Both the position numbers and the translations under genes were made by a program. Positions 9,800 to 64,000 of a DNA stretch of 64,000 bases are shown one piece after another; the stretch's first letter is position 1, and every line of letters begins with the position of its first letter. The DNA is from Bryoerythrophyllum caledonicum (taxonomy: Eukaryota; Streptophyta; Bryopsida; Pottiales; Pottiaceae): assembly GCA_963971425.1 (NCBI GenBank), contig OZ020519.1, positions 8,820,028 through 8,884,027 of the forward strand, in the 5' to 3' direction. The notes under the pieces are model-generated. The model saw only the letters and a program-made list of their open reading frames with translations, made no database searches and was not told the DNA's origin.

Positions 9800-11472
9800 A
9801 CAGTTTCATGTGTAAGCATTTGGAAACGGATTTCAACCCCTACTATTTCATATCTTTTGGAATTGACATGCAAAAGTCACTGTGTAAAATCACTGTGATC
9901 GTACAATCTAAAGTGGCACCTCCAAATCTGAGGGATCTCTTGCTAACCTGAAGCTAATTGATGCAGTTTCAAGACCCAGATAACAGTGGAGTCTTGGATT
10001 GATTCATAGTATTTTACCCACGTATTTTAATTCTTTACATACCGTACTTGCGGGTCAATTTCATACATCAATAATTTACAATGGAAAATGTCCAGAATTT
10101 CTAGAAAATTCAACAAATTTGTCCAAATGATACCCATGGAATGCTTTAGGCGATACCCATGTAACGCCTAGGTGATACCCATTGTGTCAAAATGCCTTTG
10201 TCAAAATACTTATTTCAGAATCCAGGTGCCGGAACTAACTTGAACGTATGGCATAGAATTGTGAATGCATCCTAAACATGTTGTGTTCTTGAAATACTAT
10301 TTGTGCGACCCTTCTTAGAAGGAATATATGAGTTTAGGGTGCTTCTTAGACCAAATTAAAACAAGCTATTGAAAATAGTGTAAGGGATGTGAAAGGAAAC
10401 AAACGATTGGTGGTTAGTAAAGGGATGGGCATATTATCATGTAAGAAAAGGAACTCTAGTCTTGAAGGAGGCTAGAGTGTCAAAGTAAAGTGTTTGTTTA
10501 TTCCACCACTACGTCTATATCACATGACATAGGTTGGCGGTATAAAGCTACTTCCTCCTCTCGAGGGTACTAGATAAGAAAAGTAATATATCATTATCAA
10601 GACTTAAGTGTGTTTTACTGCAGTTTGCCAAGAGGCTATCCTAGCATCAATTTCACTAGCATGTTTTGGATCCAAAATGCATTACAATACAGTAATACGG
10701 TTTGGTTAAGGATTCACATTTTCTTTCTATAAGTCGATTTTTCACCCCAAACATAGAATCGATGGAAAATGTATCACTTCTGCATACAATTTTGAGATAG
10801 TATTTTCTTTCTGAAAATTCCTATTTCATACAGAATACGTTTTCCTCTGGTAGTTTGAAAAAGAATTGTTCAAGAATTGGAGTTCAAAATAAAAAGATAT
10901 AAAGTTTATGCCAACATGGTTTGGACCTCCTTCCATTACAATTGATTTTTAAAAATGTTGCATCCCTCTACCATTTTCAAATTGAGTACTCAAGTACTCA
11001 ATTTACAATATAAGAAAATCAACTTTAGTGACGGGAAATTTTCATAATTTCGCTAAAGTATCACAGGATTTCCTAGTTTCACTTCACTTTGAATCACAGT
11101 AAGAGTCCTCAAGATTCAAAAATCGGTCTCAGATGTCCTTGGGACACAGACAAAAGATTATGATACAAACTAATAGGAGAAAACTAGAGTTGCCGAAGCT
11201 AACTACACTAAACTGAGAATTAGTGTTCGCAACACTAATTACGAACACTAACACTAAGTCTAGTTAGGGCAACAACACAAATAGATCTGCATGACATTAA
11301 AGTCCTGTCCAAAACTATCACATGGCTTACACTTTTGAAGCACATGAAGGTTCTTGCCAGGATTCCAATACACCGTTGAATTTGAGCTGCTGCCGCAGAA
11401 GCACGTGAGCTTCAATTGCATGATGATTTGTCTCAATTCATAAAATTGGATAAAACCATGGCCACTTCAGAT
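9800..11472. other. Intergenic; dispersed AT-rich repeat near 10078-10200
   Basis: No gene seen. About 10078-10200 (motifs AATGTCCAGAATTTCTAG, GATACCCATG) resembles about 26770-26890 and, reversed, about 34480-34680, so it is a diverged dispersed repeat. A small palindrome sits near 11215-11245. The part next to 11473 would be the 3' flank of the oxidase gene. Confidence 0.45.
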
Positions 11473-50752: not shown

Positions 50753-52569
50753 GTGTATGAGCAAGAAATAGATATGGACCAGTGGGGCAGCACAAGAATT
50801 CTTATGTATGGAGACGACATGGAAATTGAAGCATCCGATGAAAAACTGAAGAGACACCCAAGCATTGCCTCCACAACGAACCAAGATGGAGTATCCCCTC
50901 CAGCAAGAAAAAGAAGATCTCTAACGTGGAAGGTATGATGCACTCTCTCGAACCCAAGGTCTCTTCCTTCAAATTTTGGTTGGGATTTTCAAGTAATGGA
51001 GGACATGGCTAAAGAGGAGGGACTTGAGCCACTAATCCAAGATGAGTCTATACTCGACATGGTAACAAGAGGAATCAAAGAAGTAGAGGCCAAAAAAATC
51101 ACCCTAGCAACTCCGGCATTTCCACGAATTCCTCAAACCCTATACCTTTGTGCAAGGAAGGAGGCGGTTGGACAACACTACAACATAACACATATACCGT
51201 TCGACATCCCGGTAAGTGAAACTACCGGACTTGCCCTTGATTTTCAAGTGTCCATCCACTTTGAGGTAGGCAATCTTGTCCTCATGCATGATGATGTCAA
51301 AGTCTTGGTGATTGATAGGCTAAAATTCATGGAAATTGAAGTAGGTAATGAGATTATTGACCCTATTTCCATCCTTTGCATGAGTGTGAAAAATGCCGGG
51401 AAGAAGGGGGTTTGGGCGGGTATAATTAAATTGCATCTTCTCAAACCCGAGATTGATGGCATAAGCCTCCTCAAAGGTCTTAGACCTTTCATCTTCAAGT
51501 TAGACAAACAATATGTGATAGGAAAAGTATGTAAAACTTATCATGCCATTGCAAGGAACTCTAATCTTTCTACAAAAATTAAAAGTGACTCTCTCAAGGG
51601 CATTTCAGCCAACTCTCTCTTTGAAGACATTCTTCGCAACAGTTTTAACCGTGGGCTTGAGTTTGAAGTAATCAATGTGCAGAAAGGTAAAGAAGAGAGT
51701 CATGCATTTATCATTGCACCAACTCCACAACAAGCGGCGAAGATTAAGCTACACCAAGTTGCTACCAACCACGAGATGCTCCAACCAACAGGCAATATAG
51801 GCGAATCTTCAAATGGAAACACACGGGAGAGTAACGCAAAGAAGGATGCCATTACTCTAACTCTAACTCAAATGCCTATTCGTATGAATGTTGAAGACAC
51901 TAGTGCTGAAATTCACAAGGTTATGGGAATGTGTAATATAAACCACATTTGGTTCCATCGTGACAATGGACATAGGCACAATGGAAGTGCCAATGTCCAT
52001 TGTGCTAATGCTATAATTTATAGGAAGTTTGTGGACAAGGTCATCAAGCTAGGAGGTCACTATGTGGACTTCACTCCACACCGAAGAAGCCTTGATGGAA
52101 TTGAGCCTCCTACCAAGGAGCAAGTAGAGGAATTTGGCTTCTCGGACGTTAACACAGCCAGAAGAAGAAGAACGCCGGTCCCCGGAGGGGACCGGCGTGA
52201 GTAAAGTGTCCGTTCATTCCACCACTAAGTCCATGCCCACCGGGCATGGGTTAGTAGTGTGGAACTACTTCCCCCTTTTAAGGGTAGACTAACAAAGCCA
52301 TTGTTAATACCGTGGAGGCCTTCAAGATGGAAGAGACATCTCAAAGCATCACGAAGAAAGACATCCTTGCCATAGTGGAGACCGCGGTGGAAGAAAGCAA
52401 CAAGAAAATACGGTTGGAAACACAAGCATATGCGGACAAGAAGAGTGATGAATTGAAAACCCAAATGCTTAGTATTCAACACACGATGAGTGCAACACTT
52501 GCATCATTGCAAGCACTAACCGAAGCCATGAGCACACCAAGAATTGAAGATGGACCGCCAAAAATGTGA
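50753..52569 (+). pseudogene. LINE-B ORF1 (RNA-binding, RRM-like), interrupted
   Basis: ORF1 proteins bind the element RNA and act with ORF2 in retrotransposition. One frame runs from ATG 50753 to 52159 with a single in-frame TGA at 50936-50938. After removal of 140 bp (52160-52299: insertion plus one target copy) it continues in the same register to a stop at 52567-52569, about 557 codons in all. The N-terminus has a basic cluster PPARKRRSLTW. The part near 51880-52140 (MPIRMNVEDTSAEIHKVMG, VHCANAIIYRKFVDKVIKLG, HYVDFTPHRRSLDG) looks like a degenerate RRM. The tail after the insertion is a Lys/Glu/Gln helix that may be a coiled coil. A later ATG at 50996 avoids the TGA and still gives 402 aa up to the insertion. 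Confidence 0.7.
52160..52290 (-). mobile_element. 131-bp 5'-truncated LINE 3' end inserted in LINE-B ORF1
   Basis: Reverse-complement match to LINE-A 1297-1425, including both hairpins (CCATGCCC/GGGCATGG, and a perfect 11-bp stem CGCCGGTCCCC/GGGGACCGGCG) and the TTC tail. It is flanked by AACACAGCC (52151-52159) and AACAAAGCC (52291-52299), a 9-bp target duplication with one mismatch. Removing it restores the ORF1 frame exactly. This fits a very short antisense product of target-primed reverse transcription. Confidence 0.85.
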
Positions 52570-53437
52570 AGATTGAAGACCGCAAGGAAAAAGGTATTAC
52601 ATACATACCAATATATGCTATATGCAAGATATACATGCTTTGTAATTGCAATACATATACAAAATACGTATTAAAATACATAGTAGCATACAAGGTAGCA
52701 CTACTAGTAATCTATATAGTATTATCCACCGTACATATAGAGATACACACAATAGAATACATGGTAGAATACATAATAGTATACATAGGCACGTATCCCA
52801 CAGAGTATACGCTATACAATCTATGTATGGTATACCCATACTGTATTAAAACAAAAAATAAATACAAATACTATACAAAATATTGTATATACAATACATA
52901 TACAATTACAAATACATATATCTACACTGTATTGGACAAAAATATAGACCTTTATACAAATACGAATACAAATATAAACACCAGTATAAATACTGAAATA
53001 CATAATAATACAAACATAAAAACAAACACTAGTATAAATCCCAACATATATACTAATACAAATACATATAAAAACGACTTAAATACCCCTTCAAATACCA
53101 ACATAAACCCATATACAAATATTCTTACACATAATAGTCACATACACACATGGCCAAACACAACCACAAAAATATACAAACAAACATACACACACCTATA
53201 CATCATTAATAAAACAAAAACAACTACGCAAATAAACACATGGACACATAAAAAGTTAACGACGAATACAATTACACCCACTATAAAAATGAATAACAAA
53301 AAATACATTACCTACATTCAAAATACAAACACCCGCTCACCCCCAAACAAACAAGACTTTAATAACATAACAAAGCCTCCAAAAATTATACAAAAAACAA
53401 AACTTTAAAATACAACAATAAACATACATATCACAAA
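52570..53437 (+). repeat. A-rich, G-poor low-complexity spacer between LINE-B ORFs
   Basis: About 850 bases built of quasi-repeated ATACA / AATACAA / TATA words, with hardly any G after 52850. A 280-codon frame is open here (52566-53408) but its product is almost only Asn, Thr, Ile, Tyr and Lys and follows from base composition. I do not treat it as a gene. Confidence 0.65.
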
Positions 53438-53840
53438 CTCCTACTACTTCTAGGAGGAGACATAGAAACCAACCTGGGGCCCATGCCTAATATACTAAAA
53501 AGACACCCTACATCACATAAGAAAAATGCCAAAACATACTTCGTACCTAACACCATAAAATTACAACCGGAATATGAACACATTGCAAAATCCTTCGCAC
53601 CTTTTTTAAAAAACACACATAACACTACACACCCAAACATTGCCCAATACATACAACAAAAAAATACGCATCCACCACCCCACATTCTATATGCCCTAGT
53701 AGTCACTACTCACCTACACATAGATGAATGTAATCATCTCCTAAATCCACAAAATTCGAACACAACCACATGGACCAATACACTTTTACAAACTTTACTA
53801 AACTTACAAAACCCACCAGAACGATACATTCACACTCCGC
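53438..53840 (+). pseudogene. LINE-B ORF2 N-terminus with 2A-like leader (left part)
   Basis: The frame reads LLLLLGGDIETNLGP (53438-53482) followed by an ATG and about 119 codons to the LTR retrotransposon insertion at 53841. The pattern LLLL-x-GD(I/V)ExNPGP is the 2A-like ribosome-skipping motif known at the N-terminus of several LINE ORF2 proteins; here NPGP has become NLGP. The frame is open further upstream to at least 53400 but no ATG for it was found. It continues after the insertion at 63358. Confidence 0.65.
53837..53840. repeat. Target site duplication (left) of the Ty3-type element, CCGC
   Basis: CCGC directly before the left LTR, matching CCGC at 63354-63357 directly after the right LTR. 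Only four bases match, although five is commoner for Ty3-type integrases. Confidence 0.7.
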
Positions 53841-54049
53841 TGTCGTGGAGAGAGAATTTGCCTTGGGAAAACGCAGGGTTCTTGGCTGCTACCAATTTCA
53901 GTAAAGGAAGAAGGGAGGTGTAATAAAGGCGATCTTCATTGGTGATAAATTTGAAATAATACAAAGTAAGACTTAGATCTTCAATAAAGGTAAACTTCTT
54001 GACTCATCTTGACAAACCCTCGCAAGTGATTAAACAAGTAGTTTGAATG

Positions 54050-54720
54050 AACTTGGGGCAGCAGAATCTTCTCTCATTCTATCAAGCTCTACCACTTCAT
54101 ACTTAACTTTATATGAGCATGCAATAGCTTCTTAGAAAGCTAATATAGTAAGGCTCATACGTACAAAATTTAAATATAAAAATATCTATACAAATGCTTC
54201 TATAAGGAATCAAAGTCACTGCTCTAATTTGCTCAAGGCAGCTGACTCCTTTCCACTCAATCTAGCATAACTCTCTCAAACCAACTCCAATCCACTTACG
54301 TAATAGCTTTTTGAAAAGCTAACAACAAGATCAACAAGTGATAAAATTCTCAATCCTACTGATTCTATATTCAATGAACTATAGTTGCTCAAAGTCACTG
54401 CTTGAAACTTGTGGAAAACAACCCGCTCCTCCGAGAACACTCCTTCAATAGATCAAGTGCCACGACTCCATAACAACTCGGATTTGAGCTTATGATAGCT
54501 CATTGGAAAGCTAATACAATCAACACTATACACACAAAGATTCATTATCTCACTCTTTGTATACAAGTTTCTACATGGAATCAAAGTTACTGCTCTCGAA
54601 AATTCATGGCAGCAGTACCCTCTTTTATTCAAATCCACACCACAGCTTCTACATAACTCCGATTGGAGTGTGTGATAGCTTGTTGGAAAGCTATTAACAA
54701 GTTCTACAACACTCTAAAAA
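54050..54720. repeat. Four degenerate ~180-bp direct repeats within the LTR
   Basis: A core ATAGCTTNTTRGAAAGCTA recurs at 54124, 54303, 54495 and 54675 (spacing 179, 192, 180). Between cores the same order is seen: TATACAA..CTTCTA, GGAATCAAAGT(C/T)ACTGCTC, GGCAGC, CTC..., CATAACTC. The core is itself a hairpin (AGCTT/AAGCT). The same set is present in the other LTR at +7912. Confidence 0.75.
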
Positions 54721-55128
54721 CTGACATCAAAACTCACAAAACTCTACCTCTCACACTGGAAAACCCGAGCGTCTTTTTATACTAAATGGAGGAGGCTTAG
54801 GCTGAGGGAGGAGGGAAGAAAAGTCAAGGGCCTAAATCAGCCCATGCTTCTCTAGCCTTCCTTTTGACTCACCCTTGGACACCAAAGTCTATTTACCTCC
54901 AAATCTTATCCAAATCTTCCCACATAAGCCTAGCTTGACTTTTATTTCCTAACCTATAACTCTACTACAAGTTGGCACTATATTTCTCCCCCTAAACTAA
55001 CCCCCAAACTAAACATTTCTTATTTCTACTACAAACTATAATACCATAACACTCTGTTTAAGTTTTTTGATCTCAGAAGAGTTAGAGAATAGCTTAAATA
55101 TCACTAGAGCCCACGTACTGCCATCGAC

Positions 55129-55190
55129 CGCGGCTTAGTTCGGCTGGCTAAGCTTTTCGTTGCACCTCGCCGGTCCGGGTTCGATTCCTT
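55129..55190 (+). other. tRNA-like module in the 3' LTR, antisense to the element
   Basis: A box-like TAGTTCGGCTGG (55136-55147) and a perfect B box GGTTCGATTCC (55178-55188) lie 42 bases apart, the spacing of a tRNA gene. Acceptor and T stems do not pair well, so it is not an intact tRNA. It may be a SINE remnant or a captured polymerase III promoter. Confidence 0.55.
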
Positions 55191-55440
55191 GGCTTGTCAG
55201 AGCGGCTGGCGCTCGCGCGGTCAGGGGACTGCCGGAATCAGCAGCAAATCCAGCTGGTGGACGCTCCTAAGCCTGAGCTAGTGACAAGATGCAGTAAAGA
55301 TCCTCTAAGATAAGCTTCTGGCCTGGTAGGGTAATTGAGGAAAAAGCCATTTATTCTCCACAATTACCTTAACCAGCTAAATTCCCCATTTTTCTTCTCA
55401 ATCTTATTTTTTATATCATGAACTATATTGCATCACGACA

Positions 55441-55452
55441 TCCACCCCCTCT
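55441..55452 (-). other. Polypurine tract
   Basis: AGAGGGGGTGGA on the minus strand abuts the 3' LTR; this is the expected primer for plus-strand DNA synthesis. Confidence 0.75.
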
Positions 55453-55482
55453 AAACCTGCACATCGTCCATGATGTGCCAAG

Positions 55483-58400
55483 TTAGTCCGTTTCCGATGT
55501 ATCTTCCATGCCTTCGTCCTCTTCCTCAATGTATGAATCATTGTCTTCTTGTTGGCTTAGGCTTGAATCATCTCCTGACATGTCCTCAAAGCAATATCTG
55601 CCATCTCTCTTCTTGAATGCCTTGATTCTCTTGCCAGCTACTGGAATTCTCAATAGCGTTCCATCTAACTCACGAAGTGTGTAAGTAGCATTATTATGTA
55701 CTTCCACCACTACATATGGTCCAAACCATCTACGTGCAAACTTTCTGAGAGTACTATGTTGATGCTCCAGAGTGCTATCAAACACTAATACCCAATCCCC
55801 AACTCGAATCTGGTTTGTCCTCAACCGATGAGTTCTATCAAATCTGGCTTTGTTCTTCAACCGCGCTATCTTCATCCTTTCGATGGCCACATTGTGGTCT
55901 TCAGGCAATCTTTCCAATTGCTTTATGCGGAGTTCTAATAATCTTTCTGTGCTAACTCCATCTTTCCAATCCAAAAACACCCAAGTAGGCAATGAGTCTT
56001 CTACAGGCAATATTGATTTTTGTCCCATCATAAGCTCAATTGGCATATAGCCAGTGACAGTACTATGTGTAGTCCTGTCTGCCCACAATGCAAATGGTAG
56101 AAGTCTAGGCCAATGCTTTGGTTTTCCTTTACAGGCTTTGACAAGTGCGTTGATGATTGGAGGATGTCCTCGTTCACTCTTGCCATTAGCCTCAGGGTTA
56201 TAAGCGGTAGTTAGCCTCAGTTTCACACCATACCTTTGAAAAAAACTTCTAGCTTCAGCTGCATTTAATTCTCCACGATCTGCTCTCATTCTGCCAACAC
56301 TACCATATCTGCTGAAAATGTCTTCTAGGATGAACCTACAAATTCCTTCGGTAGACTTAGTTCTTAAGGCTCTACCTTCTACAAAATTTGAGAGTTCTTC
56401 CCTTGCCAAAACAAGGTACTTCATACTCCACAAACCTGATGGCATCGCGACTAAATCAATTACCCATTGAAAATGTATGGCAAGTGGGTAGGTTGGATGC
56501 AACTCATCTCTGTATCTAATTTTTGATTGGAGTTGACAATCAATGCATGAAGCTACAAATTCTTCCACATCCTTGTACAAACCCTTCCACCAATACCGTT
56601 CTTTGATTTTGTTGTAAGTGGCCCAAATCCCTCTGTGTCCTGCCCAAAGTGTGTCATGAAATTCTTTGAGGACTTGATTTTTGGTATCAGTATCATCAAC
56701 CACTCTTAACGGCACCCCATCTTTCCTCTTTGGCCTCTTCCATAACAATCCATCTCTCAAAAGATAACCATAAGACTGGTGTCTAATATCTTTATATGTC
56801 TTGTCTGACCAGTCTCTATGTTTCTTCAAAGTGCTGAGATATAAGCCAATATCCTTCAGCCTTCCTTCAAATAGATCTACCTTGAAAGGTAAATCACCAT
56901 CACTTAAGTCCAACCCATCAAGTGTCATAACATAACCATAATCCCTTTCCTCATAGTCCTCTCCAATCTCTTGTGCCACCATCTCTTCCTCGCACATAAA
57001 TCTGGCTCTTGATAACATATCTGCCACTGAATTCATCTTGCCAGTAATATGTGTTAACACAGGATTCAGTGATCTGATATATGCTATCCATCTCAGCATT
57101 GCAATATCTGGAGTAGAGCAATTAGCCACCATTCCGAGTAATGGTAAACAATCAGTCTCAAGCACAACATCAGCACCAATTAAATAGTTTCTTTCTGCCT
57201 TCAATGCTGTAAGTGCCCCTAAAAGTTCTCTCTTCACTTGTGGATACGCTCTTTGACGTTCTGTGAGAATTCTTGCTCCAAATCTTATGGCATACCTTCG
57301 TCCTTCTGCATCATCTTAACCAACAGCCCAACCTGTAGCAATTGGACTGGTATCAACTGTTATAACGACTGGTCTACCACAGTTGTAATCCACTTGCTTC
57401 AAAACTGGTGGAGACATCAAAGTTTCCTTCAAGCCTTCCATGGCTAACTCTTGTTTTTGCCCCCACTTGAATTTAATCCCTTTCCTCAAAAGCTTGTACA
57501 ACGGATCAGCAAGATGAGCAAAATGTGGAACCCATGTTTGGTAGAAGACACAAGCCCCTAAAAACCTCCTTACTTCAGTGATGCTACCACATGGCTTCAT
57601 CCTAGAGATAGCATCTACTTTCTCAGGGTTAGGTTTTTTGCCGTATACTCCACACAAATGACCAACCACAATAATCTCATCAACACCAAACTTGGACTTC
57701 TCTATGGATAATGTCAAGTCCACCTCTCCAAGTCTGTTTAAGATCATTTCCACATCTCTTATGTGGTTCTTGACAAATACTCTGCAACCATCGTCATCCG
57801 TAGTCAAGTCCTTGATTTCTTCTTTGCAGCCTTTAATGGGAATATCATCTACAAAGGGTATAGTTTTCTCAGGCACAAAATTCTTGAGGATCTGGTTCAT
57901 CGCGTTTTGCATATGCGCCACCGAATTAGTGGCTCCCTGGGGCAATGTGCACATTCTAACAAGTCCTAATGGAGTTTTCATGGTAGTCAGATCTCTGCTT
58001 TCGTTCGCAAGTTGGAACTGATCATAACCAGAATATAAGTCTCCAATGGAATAGATGGCATGTCCTGCAAATGCTTCAGCAACCTCATCCACAATTGGCC
58101 CTGACCCTTTGTTTCTAATAGTAACCTTATTGGCTGGCTGCATATCTTGTATAAATCTAAGTGCACCAGACTTCTTTGGCACTGTAAACCAACGGTTGGA
58201 GTATGGAGCCATTGAAGGCTCAAGTATACCCATCTGCATCTTCTCTTTCAACAAATTCACCAACTTAGGAAGTAATGCTCTTGGCACTGGTATAGGCTTT
58301 AAGTCCCACGGCACATGAGGAACTGTAAAAATCACCATTGGTACAACCACACTAGGATGGACACATCCAATTTCTTCTTGTGAAGAAGAAAATGATTTCC

Positions 58401-59037
58401 CATGTTTAGAGAGCATATCTTGGAACATTTTTCTCTCTTGTACATGTAAGAAATCACCCCCTCCAATCTTTAGTCCAGCCAATGACTCCTCAGTAAACTT
58501 GTGCCCAATTTTCCTTGTTTCTCTTAGCCCTGGCTCCTTTTCAGCTTGCTTGATATGTTCCTCAGTGTCTGGTGGCAATTGAGTTGCCACCGGCCTCACT
58601 TTCTTCGCCACGGTCTTGTATTTGGTATTAACCCTAGCCTCAAGATGAGAAACATAACTTCCGGTAGACTCCATGGTTGTTCTTGTTTCCAGTACCTCAT
58701 CATAAAGTTCCCTTGAATGAATCTCGATTATAACATCTCTTGGTCCCGAGCTTTGAGCTAACACTCCTTCCAAAGTCCTTATTATATCGTCTGAAAAACC
58801 TTCCTCTTCTATAACTCCTGTAATATACTCATCACTCAATACCACACCCACTCTTTTTAATTTTTCTTCAGTCTTTCTAATCCATCTCTTATGTACACGG
58901 TCCAACTCTGTAATTTTTGTAAAGCTGACCAAACCATCCTTTGCTAAACTTAAAAGTCCACAACCACCATTTTTTACACTGGGGAATGTAGTATTCGATG
59001 ATCTGTTAGCACCCGTGGATCCCCAGTCTCCACGCGT
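55483..59037 (-). pseudogene. Pol of the Ty3-type element (reverse transcriptase, RNase H, integrase)
   Basis: A single frame runs from about 59037 to 55483 with one stop (TAA at 57316-57318, just inside RNase H after TGWAVG). RT motifs: FIQDMQPANKVT, SIGDLYSGYDQF, LPQGATNS and the catalytic FVDD (in PFVDDIPIKG). RNase H starts with ITVDTSPIATGWAV and has LETDCLPLLGMV and HITGKMNSVADMLSRA. Integrase has the HHCC zinc site (HRG...CIDCQ), Asp in WVIDLVAM, Asp in MRADRGELN and Glu in NGKSERGH, then a GPYVVVEVHNNATYTLRELDG tail; no chromodomain. The block IIVVGHLCGVYGKKPNPEKV and the integrase tail resemble fungal Ty3 elements more than the common plant lineages. It is in the -1 frame relative to protease. 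Confidence 0.88.
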
Positions 59038-59042
59038 GCAAT

Positions 59043-61700
59043 CTAGAAATCCTGAAAGTCTTCGTTGCCACGGTCATAACCCATAGGTTCATCTCTAAGC
59101 TGATCCCTATGCCTCTCATTGTTTGATTTCACGGTGAGAAACTGTACAGCTTGCATCCCATCCAAACTACGAATTCTTGCATAGTGTGAGCCATCATCCA
59201 AAACCTTGGTCTCCATCCTTGTTGCTGTAATATATGGCTGACCAAGAATAATAGGATAAGACCCATAGTTTTGAACAAAGTAGTTTTGTTCCACCTCAAC
59301 ATTTCCAATCTTGGTTTTGACCGCTGGACATGCTCCATACAACTTGCCTTTCTCATTGTTTGCTGCCCGCATCACCCATCCATGGTTAATATCAATAGGC
59401 CATTTTCCTTTCTCATATAACTTCCTGGATATGATATTAATTTCTGAACCATGGTCCACAAGGGCTAAAAAAGTCTCATCCAAGTCTCCAAGTTTAACAC
59501 GTGTCTCTGTAGTGGCTCTTGCCCAAAATGGATGAGTAAAAGCTGTCATTGCTTCACTCCCACGCATCACTTGAGACTTGTTGTGCAAACAACAAGAAAC
59601 ATTGGCTTCTATAAAAGCCTCTTCTCTACTGACTCGCTGTAGTGTATCGTCCTCCACAAGTGCTCTGTCTTTCTCTTCCACCACCCTCTCTTCTTGGTTC
59701 TTGTTAGAATTTGCTTCAACCATATTCTTGCCACTACAGCTGCAAGCAAACATTTTCAAAACCTCATCCTCCATTTCTCCATTCAATAGTTCTTCAATTC
59801 CTTCATCATCTTCATCAGTCTTCATAAAGACACACTCTGTCTTCTTCTCTTGGCCTTCTGTATCCACATGGTCATACATCAATGCAAATACTTGACCAAT
59901 TTCTTCCTCCTCATCTTCTGTCATATGAGTGTCCAATGCTCTAGTCATCACTATTTCGACAGTGATCTGTCTCTTCCTCTTGATGACATCAATGATGAGC
60001 TCATGAAAGTCCTTTTTGGCTATGCCAAGGGCTTCCCTCAGAGTAAACTCTATCTTGGCATCCAAAATCCTCTCTTCTAGAATACCTTTCATATCGATAG
60101 AGGTCTCAATATCAGACTGAAGTCTATAAGCCGGTGCTTTGCCTTTCCCCTTTACTCCATCTTCCTTCGCTTTCTTCTCACCACTCATTATTTCCTCCCA
60201 CTTCTCCTTCGGAAGCGGTGCACCTCCTGGATGAGAGGTAGAAGGTCGTCCTTCTTGCCTTTGTCGTGTTTGACCTGCTGGGCCTTGATTCTGAACATTT
60301 TCCTTCCCAACAGGTGTCTTCTTCTTGCTAGCAGGTTCTTCAGCTTCATCTTCTGTATTTCTACCTCTCTTCACTTCTACAATCACATCCTGAGGCTCTT
60401 TCTCTCCATTCTCACTTCCCAAGTAGGCTTTGATGGTATTAGAGTCCACAGGATCATCCCAACCCGTTAGACTTCTGATAATTTGAGCCCCCCTGATCAT
60501 AACTTCTCGATTCGGATTTGATAATGCTTCCACCCCATTCTGTACTACTTGAATATTGTAAGTTTCAGCATCTCTGAGATGAATAGAGCTAGTCCTACCT
60601 AGCTTATCATCCACCAATTTCTTCATCCCTCCTTTACCAAAATTCGTGGCCAGTGGATCACCTGATGTAGCATCTCTGATCATCCCTTCTCTGAAAATGA
60701 TGATACCCGCCTTCAAGTCATCTGCAAGAAACTTGCAGTCTCCACGTTTGTGACTCGGGTCATCACAATAAATACATCGCACAACAAATCCTCTTGAGCC
60801 ATCAGCAGGGCGGGTGTCGTTCATCATACGGCCTTTTTTCAGAGCACTCATCTCCACCTTCAGTTCCTTGAGGCCTTTCACAAGATCTTCAAGAGTGTCA
60901 TTATCAAGGATTTTGCCACTAGACGAACTTGATGGCGTTGAAGATACCGAAGATGCTGGAGTCTTGGAAAACGATACCACTGGTGCATCACCCCTCGATA
61001 TAACTCCACGAGCCTTTACACGTTGCTGCTTGGCAATAAGGCTCACTAACTCCTCCAATCTCCTCCAGTTGGGATCAAAACCTCCCTCGGCTGTCACGTC
61101 TTGAAGAATAAGAAGGAGTCTGTCTTCCAAAACATCATCAGCAGCTTGGAGAAATAACTCGGACTTCCTCGTATCAAGAAGCCGCTTCTCAGATAGTGGA
61201 AGTTGACCATACTTCTTCTCAAACTCTCTCTAGAGTTCGTTCGGCCCCATGGTCTTTCCAGGCTGCATTTCCACCCACTCCAAGAATGCCCTCTTAGACA
61301 TTCGCTGAGAATCTTCATCAAAATACTCTTCCTTCAACCTCTCAGCAAACCTTGCCCATGTATTTACATTCACTGCATCATGGAGTTCTCTCACTCTTTC
61401 TCGAATCTCGGGCACAACCGCAAGATCAAACGTCTCTATCATTCGTGCCTCAGGCACCTGATAAATCTCCATCTCACAAGTGTATGCCCTCAAAAACCCC
61501 GTGATATTCTTGCCATCAAATCTTCCAATCTTACTGATGACATCCCTCAATGCTTTCGTAGCTCCTTGTCCTGCCATATTAGTAGCCTGTTGGCCCATAA
61601 ACAACTGCATGGCCCGAACAAAGTCCGCCGTGAAATTGACACCACCACCAATATCTCCAACACCACCCCCAGAGGATGACCCACCGTCGTGATCTCCCAT
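59043..61700 (-). pseudogene. Gag and protease of the Ty3-type element
   Basis: Start chosen at ATG 61700 (GDHDGGSSSGGG), downstream of the primer-binding site. The frame continues to TAG at 59043, broken once by TAG at 61230-61232 (after MGPNEL); on both sides the sequence reads on smoothly. Gag capsid-like text: LRAYTCEMEIYQVPEARMIE and FAERLKEEYFDEDSQRMSKR. The zinc knuckle is CIYCDDPSHKRGDC (C-x2-C-x4-H-x4-C). A charged linker follows, then the aspartic protease with ALVDHGSEINIISRKLYE (DHG instead of DSG/DTG) and PIILGQPYITATRMETK. The protein ends GNEDFQDF, and pol is reached by a -1 frame change in the overlap. Confidence 0.85.
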
Positions 61701-61732
61701 CTTGTCTTGACCAAATAAGTAGCCCCAAGGCT

Positions 61733-61750
61733 CTCTCAGTGGAAGCACCA
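61733..61750 (-). other. Primer-binding site
   Basis: TGGTGCTTCCACTGAGAG on the minus strand starts two bases after the 5' LTR. It begins with TGG, complementary to the CCA of a tRNA whose 3' end would read ...AAGCACCA. I did not identify the tRNA. Confidence 0.75.
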
Positions 61751-61752
61751 AA

Positions 61753-63353
61753 TGTCGTGGAGAGAGAATTTGCCTTGGGAAAACGCAGGGTTCTTGGCTG
61801 CTACCAATTTCAGTAAAGGAAGAAGGGAGGTGTAATAAAGGCGATCTTCATTGGTGATAAATTTGAAATAATACAAAGTAAGACTTAGATCTTCAATAAA
61901 GGTAAACTTCTTGACTCATCTTGACAAACCCTCGCAAGTGATTAAACAAGTAGTTTGAATGAACTTGGGGCAGCAGAATCTTCTCTCATTCTATCAAGCT
62001 CTACCACTTCATACTTAACTTTATATGAGCATGCAATAGCTTCTTAGAAAGCTAATATAGTAAGGCTCATACGTACAAAATTTAAATATAAAAATATCTA
62101 TACAAATGCTTCTATAAGGAATCAAAGTCACTGCTCTAATTTGCTCAAGGCAGCTGACTCCTTTCCACTCAATCTAGCATAACTCTCTCAAACCAACTCC
62201 AATCCACTTACGTAATAGCTTTTTGAAAAGCTAACAACAAGATCAACAAGTGATAAAATTCTCAATCCTACTGATTCTATATTCAATGAACTATAGTTGC
62301 TCAAAGTCACTGCTTGAAACTTGTGGAAAACAACCCGCTCCTCCGAGAACACTCCTTCAATAGATCAAGTGCCACGACTCCATAACAACTCGGATTTGAG
62401 CTTATGATAGCTCATTGGAAAGCTAATACAATCAACACTATACACACAAAGATTCATTATCTCACTCTTTGTATACAAGTTTCTACATGGAATCAAAGTT
62501 ACTGCTCTCGAAAATTCATGGCAGCAGTACCCTCTTTTATTCAAATCCACACCACAGCTTCTACATAACTCCGATTGGAGTGTGTGATAGCTTGTTGGAA
62601 AGCTATTAACAAGTTCTACAACACTCTAAAAACTGACATCAAAACTCACAAAACTCTACCTCTCACACTGGAAAACCCGAGCGTCTTTTTATACTAAATG
62701 GAGGAGGCTTAGGCTGAGGGAGGAGGGAAGAAAAGTCAAGGGCCTAAATCAGCCCATGCTTCTCTAGCCTTCCTTTTGACTCACCCTTGGACACCAAAGT
62801 CTATTTACCTCCAAATCTTATCCAAATCTTCCCACATAAGCCTAGCTTGACTTTTATTTCCTAACCTATAACTCTACTACAAGTTGGCACTATATTTCTC
62901 CCCCTAAACTAACCCCCAAACTAAACATTTCTTATTTCTACTACAAACTATAATACCATAACACTCTGTTTAAGTTTTTTGATCTCAGAAGAGTTAGAGA
63001 ATAGCTTAAATATCACTAGAGCCCACGTACTGCCATCGACCGCGGCTTAGTTCGGCTGGCTAAACTTTTCGTTGCACCTCGCCGGTCCGGGTTCGATTCC
63101 TTGACTTGTCAGAGCGGCTGGCGCTCGCGCGGTCAGGGGACTGCCGGAATCAGCAGCAAATCCAGCTGGTGGACGCTCCTAAGCCCTGAGCTAGTGACAA
63201 GATGCAGTAAAGATCCTCTAAGATAAGCTTCTGGCCTGGTAGGGTAATTGAGGAAAAAGCCATTTATTCTCCACAATTACCTTAACCAGCTAAATTCCCC
63301 ATTTTTCTTCTCAATCTTATTTTTTATATCATGAACTATATTGCATCACGACA
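61753..63353 (-). repeat. 5' LTR of the Ty3-type element (1601 bp)
   Basis: Near-identical partner of 53841-55440, one base longer. It should carry promoter and polyadenylation signals for the element. The internal ~180-bp repeats (cores at about 62036, 62215, 62407, 62587) and the tRNA-like module (about 63041-63102) are all duplicated here. Confidence 0.95.
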
Positions 63354-63357
63354 CCGC
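63354..63357. repeat. Target site duplication (right), CCGC
   Basis: Second copy of CCGC, directly after the 5' LTR end CACGACA. Confidence 0.7.
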
Positions 63358-64000
63358 ACCCTTATACAAAGTTTCTTGAAGACAACTAAAATATTACAGA
63401 CCATGAAAACTCAATACATAAGGAACTATATGACTTATTACATAGTCAAGCCATACCTCCCTCAAATGAAACAATAAAACTACAATTCCCTTACCTCCCT
63501 AACAATCTCATCAATGAATCACTCAAATATTTAGACCCTATACCAGAATACACCCACCCACCTCCACCACTTCCCTACATCCCTCCACAAAATCAAAACA
63601 ATAGATCAAATCAAGAAAATACATACATAATCACATGGAATGCCTCCTCTCTAAACACTGCCCTTCCTAGCTTACAAAATTTGGTCACGCACACAGACAC
63701 ACCACCAACCCTCATAATTATACAAGAAACAAAATCATCCGCCACAAAATCTACAAAATATATACAAAATATATTTCAAGACTATAAACTCATCTTTAAC
63801 AATACACATGCACTTACAAGATGCATTCAACAACGGAGACCATACACACCAGGCCGCCGTGGCCTCCTTACACTAATACACAAAAAATATGCCTTCCCGG
63901 GTAACATCAACAAAATTCCTACCCCAATGGAGATATCACCTTACATTCAAATAATCAAAATTACTAATCACCCTCTACAACCATGGTTAATCTTTCACAT
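63358..64000 (+). pseudogene. LINE-B ORF2, endonuclease domain start (right part), runs off the window
   Basis: Resumes the frame left at 53840 (joined across one CCGC). One in-frame TAA occurs near 63391-63393; after it the frame is open to the end of the window. A Pro-rich linker (YTHPPPPLPYIPPQNQ) is followed by ITWNASSLNT and LIIIQETKSS, the first two motifs (Asn and catalytic Glu) of apurinic-type LINE endonucleases, and GRRGLLTLIHKKYA further on. The rest lies beyond 64000. Confidence 0.75.

What the first reader, a model, noticed from the sequence alone, without database searches (positions are those of the whole stretch)
53438..53482. 2A-like ribosome-skipping motif (LLLLLGGDIETNLGP) at the start of LINE-B ORF2
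Seen: the frame leading into ORF2 reads LLLLLGGDIETNLGP. Known: 2A and 2A-like peptides share D(I/V)ExNPGP, and such motifs occur at the N-terminus of some LINE ORF2 proteins, where they can separate or target products. Inference: this family has (or had) such a leader; in this copy NPGP is NLGP, which should abolish skipping.
Basis: partly seen in the sequence, partly recalled or inferred. Interest (0 to 1): 0.75.

Follow-up and report, generated by a model that had tools for sequence, protein, structure and literature searches.

The report
Moss LINE with 2A ribosome-skip site
A jumping-gene family in a moss genome carries, in more than a thousand copies, a short peptide signal known from animal viruses that makes the ribosome release one protein and start the next, and here it sits between a long, probably throw-away leader and the jumping gene's enzymes; the copy in this window has a broken version.

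Summary
LLLLLGGDIETNLGP is encoded at 53438-53482 (+), in the frame that runs, across a later Ty3-like LTR insertion and one stop codon, into LINE ORF2. The host is a moss close to Ceratodon. A degenerate GDIExNxGP pattern hits 1633 places in the genome (reversed control 0); 1479 read NPGP followed by Met and 87 read NLGP, this copy among them. Of 33 protein relatives that cover the site, 30 keep NPGP. So the family has a genuine 2A/StopGo core, and this copy carries P17->L at a position reported as essential. One correction: the site is not at the N-terminus of an open frame. In 28 of 33 places the 2A frame is the longest-open one upstream (medians 188, 1 and 17 codons), through a low-complexity, variable leader. 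After the ORF1 stop the -1 frame is the longest-open in 24 of 25 sequences. Two leaders hold no AUG at all. Best model: ribosomes coming from ORF1 enter the leader by reinitiation or a -1 shift, and StopGo then frees ORF2 protein. Skipping itself was not tested. LINEs with 2A are known from sea urchin and trypanosomes; my searches listed none from plants. New variant of a known kind.

The parts
53417..53482 (+). 2A/StopGo-like peptide (conserved block of about 13 residues plus GDIETNLGP); proline-17 codon is CTG (Leu) at 53474-53476
   Evidence: conservation rises about 13 residues before GD in moss copies and in relatives
52548..53408 (+). leader ORF (286 codons, low complexity), -1 frame relative to ORF1, overlapping the ORF1 stop; taken as the upstream extension of the 2A frame, put out of frame in this copy by a small indel in an A-rich run near 53395-53410
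   Evidence: indel inferred by eye from L025 and L030
50939..52159 (+). LINE ORF1, first part, as far as one frame is open (start codon not determined; no Pfam match)
52160..52287 (+). small GC-rich hairpin insert that splits ORF1 (boundaries approximate)
   Evidence: L030 has the uninterrupted ORF1
52288..52569 (+). LINE ORF1, last part, ending ...GPPKM-TGA (stop 52567-52569)
52558..52563 (+). YCAAAM hexamer, in phase just before the ORF1 stop, candidate site of the switch into the -1 leader frame
   Evidence: present in phase 6-12 nt before the ORF1 stop in 23 of 25 sequences
53483..53840 (+). ORF2 N-terminal region after the 2A (MPNILKRHPT...NPPERYIHTP)
   Evidence: no Pfam match of its own
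53837..53840 (+). target-site duplication CCGC, left copy
53841..63353 (-). Ty3-like LTR retrotransposon inserted in the LINE (LTRs 53841-55440 and 61753-63353, 2 mismatches and 1 gap in 1601 columns; genes on the minus strand)
63354..63357 (+). target-site duplication CCGC, right copy
63358..64000 (+). continuation of ORF2 in the 2A frame, with in-frame TAA at 63387-63389, towards the endonuclease domain; runs off the window
   Evidence: no Pfam match of its own, but the corresponding part of L012 begins the Exo_endo_phos match (residues 228-401)

Best explanation
The motif is the remnant, in one dead copy, of a functional 2A/StopGo element of a large moss LINE family. In the family the RNA carries ORF1, then a low-complexity leader in the -1 frame overlapping the ORF1 stop, then a 2A of about 20 residues, then one long ORF2 (endonuclease, reverse transcriptase, RNase H). 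Shown by sequence: the NPGP core and its conservation, the frame continuous with ORF2, the open leader, the -1 opening after the ORF1 stop. Inferred: ribosomes that finish ORF1 enter the leader at the stop codon (termination-reinitiation more likely than a -1 shift), read the leader, fail to make the Gly-Pro bond at NPG/P and go on, so that ORF2 protein is released from the leader with an N-terminal Pro. Because the leader is cut off, it can grow and change (microsatellites, duplications) as long as it stays in frame. In the window copy NPGP is NLGP, so skipping should be lost.
For: Copy number and control: 1633 against 0. NPGP-Met 1479, NLGP 87. Synonymous codon variety at conserved residues, e.g. 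Pro-17 CCA/CCT/CCG/CCC and Gly-18 GGA/GGC/GGT, points to selection on protein. In relatives found with the ORF2 profile (75 proteins), 33 cover the site and 30 have NPGP; exceptions P0047 NLGP, P0058 NFGP, P0054 NPDP. In the 31 with at least 40 residues upstream, at positions that my pattern left free, Pro-17 is kept in 30 and Pro-19 in 31, the Met after NPGP in only 21. The 2A frame is the longest-open one upstream in 28 of 33 places, medians 188, 1 and 17 codons for the three frames. The -1 frame after the ORF1 stop is the longest in 24 of 25 sequences and exceeds dinucleotide shuffles (p<0.05) in 22 of 25; the pattern was seen in 17 of 18 and then held in 7 of 7 assessable newly fetched loci (1 of 8 set aside). 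Six of the 25 are unbroken from ORF1 stop through leader and 2A into the start of ORF2. Decayed second 2As lie upstream in L012, L020, L021, L024, L028, L037 (6 of 32 loci) and in L022 by eye, each with a 2A that keeps the core abutting ORF2. [quoted passage not shown]
Against: No skipping assay; no transcript or protein data. No fetched copy is intact from ORF1 to the end of ORF2: the six with an unbroken leader have ORF2 open for 24, 970, 31, 409, 341 (end of fetched stretch) and 86 codons, while of the three with ORF2 open about 2000 codons, L012 and L025 show no ORF1 end in the stretch and L022 has a broken -1 leader. L019 does not show the -1 opening; L014 and L031 do not exceed shuffles. 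Five of 33 places do not have the 2A frame longest, and counted from the motif the 2A frame exceeds shuffles at p<0.05 in only 14 of 21 places (CAA arrays leave every frame open). The duplicated-2A observation is biased because every anchor had to match the pattern, and L012, L020, L022, L024 and L037 share one leader cluster. Many fetched loci are related copies (20 clusters among 33 places). Asn-16 and Gly-18 were required by my pattern in the relatives, so their constancy is no evidence.
Confidence: 0.85

Rival explanations
1. ORF2 translation starts at the AUG that directly follows NPGP; the leader and 2A are then mostly untranslated, and the motif is a relic.
For: ATG follows NPGP (or its decayed form) in all 33 moss places examined and NPGP-ATG stands at 1479 of 1633 genomic matches. 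In L010 and L032 no ATG in any frame lies between ORF1 stop and the 2A. Seven relatives are predicted to start at or right by that Met (P0011, P0028, P0030, P0034, P0035, P0037, P0042), although a gene caller's choice is weak evidence.
Against: The ATG follows a Pro codon (CCN), so position -3 is always C, a weak context (recalled rule). Met is replaced by Leu, Lys, Ile, Arg or Pro in 10 of 31 relatives, 9 of which keep NPGP. The leader stays open in the 2A frame far beyond the other two frames.
Confidence: 0.06
2. The 2A is an N-terminal signal-sequence 2A as in sea-urchin NLR proteins: ORF2 starts a few codons upstream and the leucine-rich stretch is a signal peptide whose removal decides between two destinations.
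For: Leucine run just before the core; such dual-function 2As exist (PMC4981915, abstract and first part of Results).
Against: No Met stands within 30 residues upstream in 32 of 33 moss places (exception: the upstream place in L021). The open frame goes on for a median of 188 further codons, and 31 of 32 relatives with the motif have 48-894 residues before it (P0047 has 16).
Confidence: 0.05
3. The leader is reached by programmed -1 frameshifting at the YCAAAM site, giving an ORF1-leader fusion, rather than by reinitiation at the ORF1 stop. (Alternative within the best model, for its first step.)
For: The -1 frame after the ORF1 stop is the longest-open in 24 of 25 sequences and the hexamer stands in phase in 23 of 25. 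Two of six unbroken leaders have no AUG at all.
Against: The site is not a canonical X XXY YYZ heptamer. No consistent RNA structure downstream (mean z -0.87 over 19 sequences; z below -3 in L010, L017 and L031, all of one group). Four loci have an ATG overlapping or touching the ORF1 stop (ATGA or TAATGA: L009, L013, L029, L020), as in stop-start coupling.
Confidence: 0.3
4. Chance resemblance.
For: None found.
Against: 1633 places against 0 in the reversed control.
Confidence: 0.005

Closest known systems
2A-like sequences of APE-type non-LTR retrotransposons (sea urchin, trypanosomes; Odon 2013 and Heras 2006, seen only as citations)
   Same: LINE-encoded 2A-like core of the DxExNPGP kind
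   Different: Host is a moss; the site lies behind a long, low-complexity leader that opens in the -1 frame over the ORF1 stop. The two papers were not read, so their architectures were not compared
Picornavirus 2A (StopGo)
   Same: The nonapeptide GDIETNPGP is listed for several picornaviruses (PMC8623073, table passages)
   Different: Encoded by a transposon; the upstream product looks disposable, not a capsid protein (inference)
Sea-urchin NLR 2A signal sequences (PMC4981915)
   Same: Hydrophobic 2A at a junction before a protein encoded by a cellular genome
   Different: There a 26-residue N-terminal sequence; here tens to hundreds of codons precede it in most copies
Stop-start translational coupling of the silkworm LINE SART1 (described in PMC5972666, passage and reference)
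   Same: ORF1 stop overlapped by the next reading frame; a TAATG-type junction is seen in L020
   Different: 21 of 25 sequences have no AUG at the junction, and the coupled frame leads to a leader and a 2A, not directly to the enzymes

Membership tests
2A/StopGo element | Core (D/G/C/N)(V/I)ExNPGP | tested here: met
   Family: 1479 of 1633 places GDIExNPGP-Met. Window copy itself: not met, NLGP
2A/StopGo element | Conserved upstream stretch of the kind that fills the exit tunnel | tested here: met
   Leucine/isoleucine-rich block, conservation rising about 13 residues before GD; resembles L-rich motifs described in PMC12846837 (passages)
2A/StopGo element | Lies inside one open frame with coding sequence on both sides | tested here: met
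   Downstream: L012, L022 and L025 (3 of 20 ten-kb loci) open to the end of the fetched stretch, about 2000 codons. Upstream: open leader, longest frame in 28 of 33 places
2A/StopGo element | Two products without a peptide bond at Gly-Pro | not testable with these tools
   Needs a translation assay
APE-type LINE | Apurinic-like endonuclease and RT in one ORF | tested here: met
   L012, L022, L025: Exo_endo_phos, RVT_1, RNase_H above Pfam cut-off. The window's own two ORF2 pieces gave no Pfam match
APE-type LINE | Clade assignment by RT tree | not tested
   No tree was made
SART1-like stop-start coupling | AUG overlapping the ORF1 stop | tested here: inconclusive
   ATGA or TAATGA in 4 of 25 sequences, three of them one leader cluster; TTG, AAG, GCG and others at the same place elsewhere
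Canonical -1 programmed frameshift | X XXY YYZ slippery heptamer plus downstream structure | tested here: not met
   YCAAAM only; no consistent structure

The most novel reading that the evidence does not exclude
A plant LINE uses two recoding steps in a row: ribosomes leave ORF1 at its stop into a -1 leader that need not hold an AUG, and a StopGo site then cuts that leader off, so that the transposon can carry a hypervariable, expendable protein leader (poly-Asn/Gln/Thr tracts, duplicated 2As) between its two genes without harming the enzyme. As far as my searches show, it would be the first natural use of StopGo known in plants.
Probability: 0.45. Interest if true: 0.78.

Novelty: new variant of a known kind. 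Interest (0 to 1): 0.62.

Why it matters
StopGo is described as common in RNA viruses, only rarely used in cellular genes, active in plants but with no plant virus found to use it (PMC12846837: abstract, sections 9 and 14, and a passage of section 11). A moss LINE family with over a thousand copies gives a natural, plant-adapted set of 2A sequences with variants, and a clean way to ask what StopGo is for in a transposon. The open but variable leader suggests an answer (freeing ORF2 protein from whatever precedes it) that can be tested with simple reporters.

Tried and rejected
Odon 2013 and Rao 2025 are not held, so I could not check whether they list plant elements. Paper searches, of which I saw listings with titles and the starts of abstracts: 2A with LINE and moss (15 of 17 listed), with bryophyte (15 of 26), the nonapeptide (one virus review), 2A or StopGo with retrotransposon (3 of 3 each, 15 of 26), LINE with moss (12 of 69). 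None of the listed titles is about 2A in plant LINEs; unlisted ones were not seen. An early idea that ORF1 and the 2A share one frame was dropped after the frame table. AUG depletion in the leader was tested and is weak overall (154 against 190 expected in 25 spacers), although L010 and L032 have none. RNA structure at the junction: not consistent. A model of the PCIF1-like region was useless (mean pLDDT 35), so no fold search was made. Pattern counts are lower bounds by the tool's own note. The count of NPGP regardless of the next codon did not complete.

Full report
Observation. The window reads LLLLLGGDIETNLGP at 53438-53482 on the plus strand, in a frame open from 53366 to 53923. It is the only match to D.E.N.GP in six frames of the window; looser parts of the pattern hit three other places. 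A Ty3-like LTR element occupies 53841-63353 inside the LINE: LTRs 53841-55440 and 61753-63353 differ by 2 mismatches and 1 gap in 1601 columns, the flanking duplication is CCGC, and its RT, integrase and related domains lie on the minus strand. With the flanks joined, the motif frame continues into ...TWNASSLNTALPSLQNL... with one TAA at 63387-63389. The window's two ORF2 pieces have no Pfam match themselves.

Host. The host is therefore a moss; the species is not known to me. The assembly has 437 Mb in 894 contigs.

Is the family consensus NPGP? The pattern GGNGAYATHGARANNAAYNNNGGNCC has 1633 exact matches (822 forward, 811 reverse) and its reversed control none. With NPGP and a following ATG there are 1479. 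With Leu in place of Pro-17 there are 87, one of which is the window copy at C7:8873483. The remaining 67 were not resolved: another residue at Pro-17, or NPGP without the ATG. Counts are lower bounds by the tool's note. Over 1064 compared bases the window copy is 91.2% identical to its nearest fetched copy, L030, with 71 transitions and 23 transversions. The CTG codon fits decay of a CCG codon (inference).

Frame and enzymes. In all 33 motif places of L009-L040 the motif is followed by the start of the same ORF2. Of the 20 ten-kb loci, L012, L022 and L025 stay open to the end of the fetched stretch, about 2000 codons; the others have stops or frameshifts. In these three, ORF2 matches endonuclease, RVT_1 and RNase_H above the Pfam cut-offs.

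Protein relatives. A search with L012 residues 1-500 gave 4 proteins. A search with a seven-sequence profile gave 75. The 61 close ones (P0002-P0062) come from ENA and JGI sources without organism names; the 14 weak ones (P0063-P0076) are other LINE or RT proteins without the motif. Of the 61, 33 cover the site: 32 by pattern (the window's own P0001 left out) and P0054 by eye. The other 28 start downstream, judged from their first residues; P0051 starts inside the site and was not counted. NPGP is intact in 30 of the 33; P0047 has NLGP, P0058 NFGP, P0054 NPDP. Among the 31 pattern hits with at least 40 residues upstream, at positions the pattern left free, Pro-17 is kept in 30 and Pro-19 in 31; Glu-14 is Glu in 26, Gln in 4, His in 1; the following Met is kept in 21. 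Asn-16 and Gly-18 were demanded by the pattern. So the 2A is more constant than the Met after it. Leaders in these 31 are 48-894 residues long; in the 12 I analysed the five commonest residues make 47-70%.

Upstream of the 2A. For 33 motif places in 32 loci I counted codons up to the first stop in each frame, starting 45 nt before the motif: medians 188, 1 and 17, the 2A frame longest in 28. The five exceptions are L009, L023, L027, L030 and L031. By leader similarity the 33 fall into 20 clusters, and taking one per cluster the 2A frame is longest in 16 of 20. In the first 21 places, counted from the motif, the 2A frame exceeds dinucleotide shuffles at p<0.05 in 14; the 7 that do not include L010 and L015, whose CAA arrays leave shuffled frames open too. 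No Met lies within 30 residues upstream in 32 of 33 places. The leader is low in complexity: (CAA)n arrays in one group; Thr/Asn/Tyr/Ile-rich repeats in the other.

Junction with ORF1. In 18 of 25 sequences (24 loci and the window) the end of ORF1 could be aligned to within about 20 residues; three were set aside because it could not (L016, L018, L026), and four have no ORF1 end in the fetched stretch (L012, L023, L024, L025). The -1 frame after the ORF1 stop was the longest in 17 of these 18 (exception L019). I then fetched eight new places: it held in 7 of 7 assessable, L040 being set aside because its ORF1 end was not aligned. The seven belong to five leader clusters, two of them already in the first set. 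Over the 25, the -1 frame is the longest in 24 and exceeds dinucleotide shuffles at p<0.05 in 22; L014, L019 and L031 do not. Copies are partly related, so these are not 25 independent events. Six (L010, L015, L017, L032, L033, L034) are unbroken from ORF1 stop through leader and 2A into ORF2, but their ORF2 is then open for only 24, 970, 31, 409, 341 (end of stretch) and 86 codons. No copy that I saw is intact from ORF1 to the end of ORF2. Two of these leaders (L010, 1098 nt; L032, 333 nt) contain no ATG in any frame; overall, ATG is only mildly rarer than in shuffles (154 against 190). Just before the ORF1 stop a YCAAAM hexamer stands in phase in 23 of 25. In four an ATG overlaps or touches the stop (ATGA; TAATGA); in others the same place reads TTG, AAG, GCG or something else. 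RNA folding around the junction shows nothing consistent (mean z -0.87 downstream, 0.02 upstream, 19 sequences).

Duplicated 2As. A pattern scan found a second, decayed 2A further upstream in 6 of 32 loci (L012, L020, L021, L024, L028, L037); L022 has one too. The upstream core is broken (ETNPRP, ETNPRS, ETNRGP, GTIPGP) while the one abutting ORF2 keeps NPGP. In L012, L028 and L037 the frame between them has no stop. This fits selection for one working 2A at the ORF2 border, with two cautions: every anchor had to match the pattern, and L012, L020, L022, L024 and L037 fall in one leader cluster.

How it most likely works. Shown by sequence: a 2A core conserved as protein, embedded in an open frame between a variable leader and the ORF2 enzymes, and a leader that opens in the -1 frame over the ORF1 stop. 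Inferred: StopGo frees ORF2 protein from the leader; ribosomes get into the leader from ORF1, by reinitiation (preferred) or by a -1 shift. Not shown: that skipping happens, and how well. For the window copy, Pro-17 is Leu. Pro-17 and Gly-18 are reported as completely conserved and essential (PMC5972666, passages); the P3A change at the same place ablated recoding of a sea-urchin 2A (PMC4981915, first part of Results); a structural role for Pro-17 is described in PMC12846837 (passages; sections 9 and 14 read).

What is known. 2A in LINEs of trypanosomes and sea urchin is described in a review I read in passages. StopGo works in plants in artificial constructs, but no plant virus was found to use it (PMC12846837, abstract and passages). 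The nonapeptide GDIETNPGP is listed for several picornaviruses (PMC8623073, passages). None of the titles listed by my paper searches (several lists capped) is about 2A in a plant LINE, but the two most relevant papers were not held. The finding is a new variant of a known kind.

Noticed in passing
L012:626-1348 (-), and the same region of L022 and L025; ORF2 residues about 1592-1730: ORF2 matches Pfam PCIF1_WW (the family of the cap m6Am methyltransferase PCIF1, function recalled) above the curated cut-off in the three copies scanned, between RT and RNase H. PDB gives only a weak PCIF1 hit (6irx, E 0.13); the structure model failed (pLDDT 35). One paper search (3 of 3 listed) showed no title on such a domain in a retrotransposon.
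   Followed up: partly
52160-52287; also 1301-1431 (inverted) and 10483-10569: A GC-rich insert of about 125 bp with two hairpins splits ORF1, flanked by a near-repeat TAACAMAGCC (by eye); similar pieces occur twice more in the window.
   Followed up: no
53841-63353: Young Ty3-like LTR retrotransposon in the LINE (LTRs almost identical), with genes antisense to the LINE.
   Followed up: partly
68-1325: 3' end of a LINE copy that looks by eye like the same family (compare the end of L012 ORF2); its own RNase_H match is below the Pfam cut-off (E 0.045).
   Followed up: no
L010, L015, L017, L026, L032, L033 upstream of the 2A: (CAA)n arrays, up to several hundred nucleotides, fill the leader in one subfamily, read as poly-Asn or poly-Gln in the 2A frame; in L026 ORF1 runs in frame into poly-Gln and the 2A, apparently through a deletion.
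   Followed up: partly
P0002-P0062: The close relatives come from ENA and JGI contigs without organism names; whether they are mosses, soil fungi or something else is unknown, so exchange between kingdoms is possible but untested.
   Followed up: no
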